Source: Candidatus Brocadia pituitae (lineage in GTDB: Bacteria; Planctomycetota; Brocadiia; Brocadiales; Brocadiaceae). Taken from it: a stretch of DNA of 64,000 nucleotides. The stretch spans positions 62,001 through 126,000 of the forward strand of contig AP021856.1 in assembly GCA_017347445.1 (NCBI GenBank), in the 5' to 3' direction. Shown here piece by piece: positions 19,762 through 58,410 of this stretch (its first letter is position 1; each line of letters starts with the position of its first letter). Position numbers and translations under genes: made by a program. A model generated the notes under the pieces. That model was not told the origin of the DNA. It made no database searches and saw only the letters and a program-made list of their open reading frames with translations.

Positions 19762-19897
19762 GTAACAATTTAGCTTTTTGAAAAATTTCAACAATGTCAA
19801 CGGTATGCCGTCGTTATGTAGGGGCAGGTTTGAAACCTGCCCCTACCGTAATGTTGATGCTACATGGATATTATTTTTCAAAAAACTAAATTGTTAC
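19762..19897. repeat. TIR element, copy A (136 bp)
   Basis: Terminal inverted repeats: GTAACAATTTAGCTTTTTG at the left, CAAAAAACTAAATTGTTAC at the right. The core palindrome at 19818-19846 is GTAGGGGCAGG...CCTGCCCCTAC around TTTGAAA. No coding potential. Copy D (41763-41898) is nearly identical, including the sequence between TIR and core. The element lies upstream of thiD. Confidence 0.85.
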
Positions 19898-20844: not shown

Positions 20845-21304
20845 CTTTCCCTTTCTTCTGATTTCAAGGGTTGTGTTTTATTATTCATGTGTCCTATTAT
20901 ATCAAAACCCACAAAAGATTACCACTCAACCGTTTCATAAAAGGCCTTACCAAATAATTCCTGAGCTAAACCACCCGCTATGCTGCAGTATTTAACAATT
21001 TAGTTTTTTGAAAAAGTAGGGGCGAAGCATTTGCTATAATTGCCATGAACACATTTATGTCAAAACGGGCAAATGCTTCGCCCCTACCCTGTACGGCAAA
21101 TATTGCAATTATTGAAAATTGTCAAAAAACTAAATTGTTACAAAAAAGCTAAAGTCAGATAAGGACGCTTGTCCTTCGACATTCATTATCCTTTGTTCGA
21201 TATTCGATGTTGGAATTCCTGTAAAAAATATCAAAACAACTGAGCGCTTATGAGGCTTCACCCCCCTGCTACATCCTAACGGCCCTTCGGGTATCAAAAA
21301 AAAC
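20845..21304. other. Gene-free gap between MBL hydrolase and anmK
   Basis: This 460-base gap holds TIR element copy B (20993-21141) and then about 160 bases of A+T-rich DNA with a TTGTTCGATATTCGATG stretch whose reverse complement resembles DNA near 7005-7020. I see no gene. Confidence 0.6.
20993..21141. repeat. TIR element, copy B, with a 72-bp palindromic core
   Basis: TIRs TTAACAATTTAG/CTAAATTGTTAC flank a 72-bp core at 21016-21087 with arms GTAGGGGCGAAGCATTTGC and GCAAATGCTTCGCCCCTAC. The same 72-bp core, inverted and without TIRs, stands alone at 42036-42107. Confidence 0.85.
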
Positions 21305-38090: not shown

Positions 38091-38218
38091 GCTTGTTAAT
38101 GTAATATGTTCGTGCGTCTTTAGCAAACAAATTTTATTCTTACGTCCCTGACATTGGACTGGTTTCTGTTTTACTTTGAAAATTGATTTATAATATAATA
38201 CTTTTGATTTGGAAATCT

Positions 38219-38453
38219 TCAAAAAACTAAATTGTTAACAACGCTTTAGTTTTTTTGAAAAATAGCCCCGTAGGGGTGAAATGTTTATAGAAAAATGTGA
38301 TATGTAAAATCTTAGCTCCATCGGAGCGACATAGGAAACACAGAACAACATGCCGCTCCGATGGAGCTTGATTGTGGTATAATGGCAAGCCTATAAACAT
38401 ATCGCTCCGAACGGAGCTTTTCACGGTATTTTTTCAAAAAACTAAACTATTAC
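38219..38453. repeat. TIR element, copy C (compound: solo TIR plus full element)
   Basis: A solo right TIR (TCAAAAAACTAAATTGTTA, 38219-38237) abuts a left TIR (CTTTAGTTTTTTTGAAAAAT, from 38244), and the right end CAAAAAACTAAACTATTAC closes at 38453. The core holds CCCCGTAGGGG, TGAAATGTTTATAG and CTATAAACAT arms, and a foldback AGCTCCATCGGAGCG/CGCTCCGATGGAGCT. Thus a different core with the same TIRs. The gap from 38091 to 38524 has no gene. Confidence 0.8.
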
Positions 38454-38524
38454 AATTGTTACAAATTTTTAAAAACCCCGGATACTATGGCTATCCCGGC
38501 AACCTAATTTTTTGGAGGATGAGC

Positions 38525-40103: not shown

Positions 40104-40237
40104 GTAGGGGCGAAGCATTTGCCGGGTGCATTCCCGATTTTTGTAAATCGGGTTAACCAGGTAGGGTGGGCATCGCCCACCAAATATCACTCGATCACAT
40201 TACCTATTTTTTTGTGGGCGATGCCCACCCTGTTGCC
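40104..40237. repeat. Composite: GTAGGGGCGAAGC half-unit plus GTAGGGTGGGC BIME
   Basis: A half-unit GTAGGGGCGAAGCATTTGC is followed by GTGCATTCCCGATTTTTGTA then AATCGGGTTAACC, then GTAGGGTGGGCATCGCCCAC and an inverted GTGGGCGATGCCCACC. The last two face each other 38 bases apart, a REP/iREP pair. Closely similar copies lie at 59604-59716 and in short form at 47974-48033. Confidence 0.8.
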
Positions 40238-41708: not shown

Positions 41709-41762
41709 TGAAGAGAGTTAAAGCGCTGCCAAAAGCACTCTATTTATATATCAGGGAATTTC

Positions 41763-41898
41763 GTAACACGTTAGTTTTTTGAAAAATTTCAACAATGACA
41801 GCGGTATGCCGTCGTTATGTAGGGGCAGGTTTGAAACCTGCCCCTACCGTAATGCCGATGATACAGGGAGATTGTTTTTCAAGAAACTAAATTGTTAT
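41763..41898. repeat. TIR element, copy D
   Basis: TIRs GTAACACGTTAG and CTAAATTGTTAT flank the GTAGGGGCAGG/CCTGCCCCTAC core (41819-41847). The interior is almost identical to copy A, which suggests recent copying. Confidence 0.85.
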
Positions 41899-41920
41899 GG
41901 AATTTCAAGTTTACGGCTGC

Positions 41921-41943: not shown

Positions 41944-42035
41944 ACATTGAAAGTACCGGAATTTCAATTACTCCCTATAATCCAGGTGAGAGAAAGGTGG
42001 ATGAAATTTTTTGTTTAAAATTCCTATACGTCAAG

Positions 42036-42107
42036 GTAGGGGCGAAGCATTTGCCCGTTTTGGCAGAAATACATTCATGGCATTTATAGCAAATGCTTCG
42101 CCCCTAC
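42036..42107. repeat. 72-bp palindromic element, free-standing copy
   Basis: Arms GTAGGGGCGAAGCATTTGC and GCAAATGCTTCGCCCCTAC, inner TGCCATGAATG-like region. It is the reverse orientation of the core of TIR element B. It ends 11 bases from the pyk stop and could act as a 3' hairpin for that gene. Confidence 0.85.
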
Positions 42108-43779: not shown

Positions 43780-43850
43780 CTTTCGGCGACCTTCCCCCCC
43801 CTGTTTCCCCCCGTAAACGGGGGGAAACAGGGGGGGGAATTGAAATTCCT
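43780..43850. repeat. TTCGGCGAC...CCCCGTTTACGGGG unit, copy 1
   Basis: CTTTCGGCGACCTTCCCC then CCTGTTTCCCCCCGTAAACG and a C/G-rich foldback, ending near AATTGAAATTCCTATAC. Similar units lie at 53820-53890 and, inverted, 58360-58410. Confidence 0.7.
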
Positions 43851-43900
43851 ATACATGTACGTTCGGTGGAGCTTGCTATTTGGGGCTGCAGGCCTGGAAC

Positions 43901-53819: not shown

Positions 53820-53890
53820 CCAGGTCTTCGGCGACTTCCCCTCCTGTTTCCCCCAGTTTACGGGGGGGGATTATGGGGGGTGATGGAAAT
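53820..53890. repeat. TTCGGCGAC...CCCCGTTTACGGGG unit, copy 2
   Basis: TCTTCGGCGACTTCCCC then CCTGTTTCCCCCAGTTTACG, GGGGGG and GATGGAAATTCCTATAC. See 43780. Confidence 0.7.
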
Positions 53891-54020
53891 TCCTATACCG
53901 CAAGTTTATAAATCACACATGGTAAGCCGCTTGAGTATAGTCGTATGGTAAAAATTCTCCATAGTCCTAACACGTACGAGCCGGAAGCGATAAAATCCAA
54001 AGCACGAAATTTGCGAATCC

Positions 54021-56603: not shown

Positions 56604-56736
56604 GTAAAAGTTTAGTTTTTTGAAAAATTTCCAAAATAACAACGTTTTACATGCCGTGTAGGGGCAGGTTTGAAACCTGCCCCTACAATAAATAATACCA
56701 CTCATGCAAAATGTTTTCAAAAAACTAAATTGTTAC
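56604..56736. repeat. TIR element, copy E
   Basis: TIRs GTAAAAGTTTAG and CTAAATTGTTAC with the GTAGGGGCAGG/CCTGCCCCTAC core at 56658-56686. The spacers between TIR and core differ from copies A and D. Confidence 0.8.
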
Positions 56737-58189: not shown

Positions 58190-58312
58190 CATGAGAGGAA
58201 CTTAAAGTCGCTTCCAAAGGCAACCGAATTAAATGTTACAGAATTTCAAACTGAGATTCTTCGGTCGCTTTGTTAGATACTAAATTATGCATAGGAATTC
58301 CAAACCGACCAG

Positions 58313-58340
58313 GTAGGGGCAATTCATGAATTGCCCCTAC
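58313..58340. repeat. GTAGGGGCAATTCATGAATTGCCCC palindrome
   Basis: Arms GTAGGGGCAATT and AATTGCCCCTAC around CATG, with GGAATTCCAAACCGACC before it. See 43717-43744. Confidence 0.85.
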
Positions 58341-58359
58341 CGTGCTGAAGGTTACTGCG

Positions 58360-58410
58360 TCAAGGAACTTCAATCACCCCCCATAATCCCCCCGTTTACG
58401 GGGGGAAAGT
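58360..58410. repeat. CCCCGTTTACGGGG unit, inverted copy
   Basis: Tracks GGAACTTCAATCACCCCCCA then TAATCCCCCCGTTTACGGGG, the reverse arrangement of 53820-53890. Confidence 0.65.

What the first reader, a model, noticed from the sequence alone, without database searches (positions are those of the whole stretch)
19762..19897. A TIR element family that swaps its inner cores
Five elements (19762, 20993, 38219, 41763, 56604) share ends like GTAACAATTTAG and CTAAATTGTTAC, about 130-235 bp apart, but the middle is different: a GTAGGGGCAGG palindrome in three, a 72-bp GTAGGGGCGAAGC element in one, and a CCCCGTAGGGG/AGCTCCATCGGAGCG pair in another. This suggests TIR-bounded cassettes that pick up other palindromes, or that these palindromes insert into a common host element. 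No transposase lies in the window. Copies A and D are nearly identical, which points to recent copying.
Basis: seen in the sequence. Interest (0 to 1): 0.72.

Follow-up and report, generated by a model that had tools for sequence, protein, structure and literature searches.

The report
Transposon shells carrying interchangeable DNA hairpins
In this anammox-type bacterium the repeats are tiny non-coding transposons (MITEs) whose shared ends match an IS66-type transposon, and different DNA hairpins have been inserted or recombined inside those shared ends over time, so the 'core swap' is real but slow and built from two known kinds of mobile DNA.

Summary
Ends related to GTAACAATTTAGTTTTTTGAAAA occur about 194 times in this 4.08-Mb Brocadia-type genome (control 6). 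In 72 complete elements they bound unrelated cores. 51 of 72 have a flanking direct repeat matching at 6 or more of 8 bp (control 4.5, maximum 10), 19 perfectly. Ends starting GTAA plus an 8-bp duplication are IS66-like, and two relatives hold multi-copy 2.4-kb IS66-family elements with almost the same ends and 8-bp duplications; this genome keeps only a decayed relic. The five are therefore MITEs apparently driven by an IS66-type transposase. The '38219' copy is two elements, one inserted into the end of an older one. The 'swap' is partly right: within each subfamily core and spacing are fixed, but A and B share one ~30-bp arm and carry different GTAG hairpins; one element joins arms of two subfamilies at the hairpin; identical hairpins stand alone; and in a sister genus one subfamily exists with and without a 29-bp GTAG hairpin, the outgroup lacking it. 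B-type hairpins flank a RAYT-type transposase gene, which suggests, but does not prove, independent mobility. New variant of known kinds.

The parts
19762..19897 (.). MITE, subfamily A1: 24-bp TIRs, spacers, 29-bp GTAGGGGCAGGTTTGAAACCTGCCCCTAC hairpin at 19818-19846. No target duplication (0/8).
20992..21141 (.). MITE, subfamily B: TIRs, 72-bp GTAGGGGCGAAGC hairpin at 21016-21087 directly next to the left TIR, 30-bp arm on the right. No target duplication (1/8).
38215..38238 (-). Right TIR of an older, otherwise unrecognised element (ending CTAAATTGTTA...; its last base is found at 38462), split by the K element
   Evidence: sequence
38238..38453 (.). MITE, subfamily K, 216 bp, with CCCCGTAGGGG and AGCTCCATCGGAGCG hairpins
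38230..38237 (.). 8-bp target duplication AATTGTTA, left copy (right copy 38454-38461); lies inside the older element's TIR
41763..41898 (.). MITE, subfamily A1, hairpin at 41819-41847
   Evidence: element absent at this locus in a close relative
41755..41762 (.). 8-bp target duplication GGAATTTC, left copy (right copy 41899-41906)
56604..56736 (.). MITE, subfamily A2 (different spacers, same hairpin at 56658-56686). No target duplication (1/8).
42036..42107 (.). Bare 72-bp GTAGGGGCGAAGC hairpin with exact GTAG...CTAC borders and no IS66-type TIRs
40104..40122 (.). Half of the same hairpin (single GTAGGGGCGAAGCATTTGC unit), next to another hairpin repeat

Best explanation
The elements are non-autonomous miniature transposons (MITEs). 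A DDE transposase of the IS66 family recognises their roughly 24-bp ends (GTAACAATTTAGTTTTTTGAAAA), moves them and leaves an 8-bp duplication, whatever lies between the ends. Several cores are GTAG-bordered hairpins that also exist on their own and flank a RAYT-type (HuH/Y1) transposase gene. Such hairpins entered MITEs on a few occasions, by their own insertion or by recombination at hairpins, and each combination then multiplied as a fixed subfamily. Shown by sequence: shared ends, duplications, an IS66-family element with near-identical ends, bare hairpins, a subfamily with and without a hairpin, a hairpin-joined chimera. Inferred: that IS66 TnpC acts on these ends in trans; that the RAYT moves the hairpins; that copying happened before the local IS66 copy decayed.
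For: Ends: 194 genome-wide versus 6 control; above the control count in 22 of 23 other genomes of the same family, up to 308 ends in one. Duplications: 8-bp identity of flanks 0.755 versus 0.409 in re-paired controls; 51 of 72 elements at 6/8 or better versus 4.5 expected. Transposase: elements in G004 (2413 bp, 10 copies) and G020 (2368 bp, 4 copies) have perfectly inverted ends GTAACACTTTAGTTCTTTGAAAAAT, 23 of 25 identical to the MITE ends, mostly perfect 8-bp duplications, and an IS66 transposase (PF03050 1.2e-37; NF033517 246 bits). Own genome: a fragmented relic of the same element, 68-79% identical to its TnpC, with a recognisable end 147 bp before the DruA ORF. End conservation drops after position 24. 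Hairpin entry: K elements of G020 occur without (275-276 bp) and with (297-299 bp) a GTAG hairpin, both with 8-bp duplications, and Brocadia K copies lack it. Chimera G000:654924-655062 = A1 arm, hairpin, inverted A2 arm, duplication only 2/8. Bare hairpins at G000:466837, 3701093, 104036, 2417509 and others. RAYT-type gene at G000:132428-133003 flanked by two B-type hairpins, stems identical over 17 bp at each side.
Against: The autonomous elements share only the terminal ~25 bp with the MITEs, with 2 differences, so they are close partners and not proven parents. No intact copy is in this genome. 21 of 72 elements lack a convincing duplication. No precise empty site was obtained for a window element: in the nearest relative the locus lacks the element but the intergenic DNA is otherwise rearranged. 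The hairpin insertion in K also removed about 10 bp of host sequence. The RAYT is below its NCBIfam cut-off (58 of 80 bits).
Confidence: 0.82

Rival explanations
1. Ordinary MITE subfamilies: each core is just a different piece of intergenic DNA that happened to lie between two IS66-type ends. The hairpins are passengers with no mobility of their own, and bare hairpins are leftovers of decayed MITEs.
For: Cores are fixed within subfamilies. Cores C, D, E, G and K share only the TIR. Intergenic DNA here is full of hairpin repeats, so random capture would often catch one.
Against: Bare hairpins have exact GTAG/CTAC borders with none of the MITE spacer left. The K subfamily gained a hairpin after its formation. 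The A hairpin is 29/29 identical in A1, A2 and bare copies although A1 and A2 spacers are much diverged. The B hairpin flanks a RAYT-type gene.
Confidence: 0.25
2. Cores changed by recombination between elements at their hairpins and shared ends (homologous or template-switch), with no insertion of hairpins by a transposase.
For: The A1/A2 chimera is joined exactly at the hairpin and lacks a duplication. A solo end at G000:722004 runs from the shared arm into a different GTAG hairpin.
Against: Does not by itself explain bare hairpins in unrelated flanks, nor the new hairpin inside K. A search for reciprocal flank pairs among duplication-less elements gave no convincing pair.
Confidence: 0.35
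3. The repeats are structural or regulatory RNA/DNA elements (terminators, attenuators) spread by gene conversion and not transposons.
For: None of the 72 is spanned by an ORF of 150 aa or more; strong folding, z -6.8 to -10.6.
Against: 8-bp duplications at 51 of 72, insertion of K into another element's end with a perfect duplication, and a transposase-bearing element with matching ends.
Confidence: 0.04

Closest known systems
IS66-family insertion sequences (TnpC, PF03050/NF033517)
   Same: Ends start GTAA, 8-bp target duplications, transposase of the autonomous partner matches PF03050 and NF033517 above cut-off.
   Different: The MITEs carry no gene and share only ~25 bp of end. The partner element carries a DruA-domain ORF ahead of TnpC in place of the usual TnpA/TnpB (the usual gene set is from general knowledge).
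Bacterial MITEs (review PMC10969869)
   Same: 50-500 bp, TIRs, duplications, no coding capacity, intergenic, high copy number.
   Different: One TIR set bounds at least seven core types, several of them hairpins that also exist alone. IS66 is not mentioned in that review.
GTAG-tagged REPs, REPtrons and TIRtrons (Di Nocera et al. 2013, PMC3733652)
   Same: GTAG-bordered palindromes in high copy, flanking a RAYT gene. That paper reports Anabaena variabilis GTAG-15 dimers inside long palindromes (TATAGGA...TCCTATA), a precedent for hairpins nested in a TIR-like shell.
   Different: Classical REPs have an unpaired GTAG tag; here GTAG pairs with CTAC. In Anabaena the shells were not found without REPs, and no transposase was tied to them; here the shell has an IS66-type partner and, for one subfamily, a hairpin-free form.

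Membership tests
IS66-mobilised MITE | Terminal inverted repeats beginning GTAA | tested here: met
   Consensus GTAACAATTTAGTTTTTTGAAAA, 80-97% per position over 144 ends
IS66-mobilised MITE | 8-bp target site duplication | tested here: met
   Flank identity 0.755 versus 0.409 for the 8-bp repeat directly outside GTAAC; 51 of 72 at 6/8 or better
IS66-mobilised MITE | Autonomous IS66 element with the same ends | tested here: met
   G004 and G020 elements, 23 of 25 end positions identical, PF03050/NF033517 transposase
IS66-mobilised MITE | Intact autonomous copy in the same genome | tested here: not met
   Only a decayed relic at about G000:2767520-2770277. Not a defining feature of MITEs in general, but needed for present-day mobility
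IS66-mobilised MITE | Transposition shown by experiment | not testable with these tools
   Needs a bench assay
GTAG REP / REPtron | GTAG-bordered palindrome in high copy, extragenic | tested here: met
   About 60 B and 29 A hairpins; 10 GTAG hairpins in the window
GTAG REP / REPtron | GTAG tag unpaired at one foot of the hairpin | tested here: not met
   GTAG pairs with CTAC at the other foot, so they are not filed as canonical REPs
GTAG REP / REPtron | Associated RAYT gene flanked by the same repeats | tested here: met
   G000:132428-133003, HAH motif, Tyr in RRYILYNP, NF047646 58 bits (cut-off 80), PF01797 26 bits (cut-off 23), flanked by B-type hairpins

The most novel reading that the evidence does not exclude
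Two unrelated transposition systems act as a nested pair: HuH (RAYT) hairpins drop into IS66-type MITE shells at few permitted positions, and the DDE transposase then spreads each new composite, so the shells work as delivery vehicles and the hairpins as exchange points for arms across a whole bacterial family.
Probability: 0.35. Interest if true: 0.6.

Novelty: new variant of a known kind. Interest (0 to 1): 0.45.

Why it matters
How MITEs obtain their internal sequence, and how REP-like hairpins reach high copy number with rare transposases, are both open questions. Here one MITE family shows empty, filled and chimeric forms in sequenced genomes, which makes the order of events readable. It also names a probable transposase for one of the commonest repeats in anammox genomes.

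Tried and rejected
TA target duplication of the IS630/mariner type (ends also read TA-ACAATTTAG): rejected, because 8-bp duplications lie outside GTAAC. Simple internal-deletion origin from the autonomous element: not supported, as only ~25 bp of end is shared although G004 copies have 69-bp inverted ends. Reciprocal flank exchange among duplication-less elements: no convincing pairs. Exact empty sites for A, B and D: the loci lack the elements in Brocadia sapporoensis (L216), Brocadia sp. BIN37 (L212) and G007, but intergenic DNA is too rearranged for an exact junction. Loss of the C core (64-bp form at G000:654410-654473 with a perfect duplication): either deletion between AGAGAAAG repeats or the reverse; not resolved. 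Literature on IS66 MITEs or on Kuenenia/Brocadia repeats: none found in the held library.

Full report
What was checked. The window is bases 62001-126000 of a single-contig genome of 4,075,302 bp; the closest named relatives of a window gene are Candidatus Brocadia and other Brocadiaceae, so this is an anammox-type planctomycete.

The ends. GTAACAATTTAG with up to one mismatch occurs 7 times in the window versus 0.27 expected. The 19-bp form occurs 194 times in the genome versus 6 for the reversed control. It is above the control count in 22 of 23 other genomes of the same family and in only a few genomes of other families of the order. Over 144 ends from 72 elements the consensus GTAACAATTTAGTTTTTTGAAAA is conserved at 80-97% per position; conservation falls at position 24-25, to background for the subfamilies other than A and B.

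Target duplications. Testing offsets and lengths, flanks match as an 8-bp direct repeat immediately outside GTAAC (0.755 versus 0.409 for re-paired flanks). In the census 51 of 72 elements match at 6 or more of 8 positions (control mean 4.5, maximum 10 in 500 shuffles), 42 at 7 or more, 19 perfectly. In the window, 41763-41898 has GGAATTTC on both sides and 38238-38453 has AATTGTTA on both sides; 19762, 20992 and 56604 have none. None of the 72 is spanned by an ORF of 150 aa or more.

The transposase. GTAA ends with 8-bp duplications point to IS66. IS66 genes in relatives have ends such as GTAACTATTCAG with 8-bp duplications. One subgroup fits far better: in G020 and G004, 2368-bp and 2413-bp elements with perfectly inverted ends GTAACACTTTAGTTCTTTGAAAAAT (23 of 25 positions as in the MITEs), mostly with perfect 8-bp duplications, encode a DruA-domain protein (PF14236) followed by an IS66 transposase (PF03050, zf-IS66, NF033517). 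G004 has ten copies, 83-84% identical in protein to those of G020. In the window's genome the same element survives only as fragments at about 2767.5-2770.3 kb, with one end still readable apart from a 1-bp gap. So the lack of a transposase in the window is as expected, and recent movement in this genome would need a protein from elsewhere.

The cores. Subfamilies among 72 elements: A 20, B 37, C 3, D 4, E 3, G 2, K 1, two others; D includes both orientations of one core. Within a subfamily the core is fixed: the 72-bp B hairpin lies 24 bp from one end and 53-54 bp from the other; the 29-bp A hairpin lies 50-59 bp from each end. This refutes frequent swapping. But the fixed units are related in a mosaic way. 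Read inward from the end, one arm of A1, A2, B, the G020 form of B and an A-like element of G010 is alignable (shuffle p 0.0025-0.0125 for most pairs, 0.05 for one), whereas the opposite arms mostly are not, and different hairpins follow the shared arm. Element G000:654924-655062 has an A1 arm on one side of the hairpin and an A2 arm, inverted, on the other, and its flanks match at only 2 of 8 positions, as expected for a recombinant.

Hairpins as separate units. Hairpins identical to the A and B ones occur with exact GTAG...CTAC borders and none of the MITE spacer at G000:466837 and 3701093 (A) and 104036 (window 42036), 2417509, 1012027 and others (B). Two B-type hairpins flank a short gene with a HuH motif (MPNHAHG) and a catalytic-type tyrosine (RRYILYNP), PF01797 above cut-off and the REP-associated tyrosine transposase model NF047646 below cut-off; 17 of 17 stem bases match the B hairpin on each side. 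The clearest case is in G020: K elements exist in a 275-276-bp form and a 297-299-bp form differing by GTAGAGACAGGTTTGAAACCTGTCTCTGC replacing about 10 bp at one site; both forms have 8-bp duplications, and the Brocadia K copies (window 38238 and G000:158056) lack the hairpin, so gain is the likely derived state. In G016 the B-type hairpin sits between spacers unlike those of B, with a perfect duplication.

Comparison with the literature. Di Nocera et al. 2013 (PMC3733652) describe GTAG-tagged repeats, RAYT genes flanked by such repeats or by self-complementary TIRs, and GTAG-15 dimers inside long palindromes of Anabaena variabilis, without hairpin-free shells there and without a transposase for the shells. 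I found no paper in the held library on IS66-type MITEs of this kind or on repeats of Brocadia or Kuenenia; subscription journals and ISfinder were not searched. The IS66 hallmarks (GTAA ends, 8-bp duplications) are from general knowledge and were re-derived here from relatives' IS66 copies.

Verdict. IS66-type MITEs: strongly supported. Cores exchanged on evolutionary time through hairpin insertion and recombination: supported by a small number of direct cases. RAYT as the mover of the hairpins: plausible, not shown.

Noticed in passing
L165:78-2445 (G020) and L196:518-2930 (G004): IS66-family elements carrying a DruA-domain (PF14236, Druantia) ORF overlapping the start of the IS66 transposase ORF, inside the same inverted ends (25 bp or more, 69 bp in G004); multi-copy with 8-bp duplications. 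No paper linking DruA and IS66 was found in the held library.
   Followed up: partly
L361 (G000:132428-133003): The RAYT-type gene itself holds an in-frame GTAG hairpin (GTAGGGGCGGG..., coding VGAGLTPAPT) just after its HuH motif.
   Followed up: partly
window 32540, 36352, 48081, 53047, 54019: Another palindrome family, AACCCTGACAGGGTTT...AAACCCTGTCAGGGTT, about five copies in the window.
   Followed up: no
window 43791-43854, 53835-53898, 42000-42035, 58293-58408: Recurrent AAATTCCTATAC / GTATAGGAATTTC borders next to various hairpins; possibly a second TIR family with exchangeable cores.
   Followed up: no
G000:654410-654473 (in L098): A 64-bp element consisting of little more than the two TIRs, with a perfect 8-bp duplication: the smallest apparently mobile form seen.
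   Followed up: partly
L062 and (G030, another family of the order): A diverged version of the ends, TAACAATTTAGTTGTTTGA, in about 40 places although no IS66 gene was detected in that assembly.
   Followed up: no
G000:1622890 (L083): A solo end lies directly before the start codon of a DNA polymerase IV-like ORF (MHIDMNAFFASVEQQ), so an insertion or remnant may supply part of its leader.
   Followed up: no
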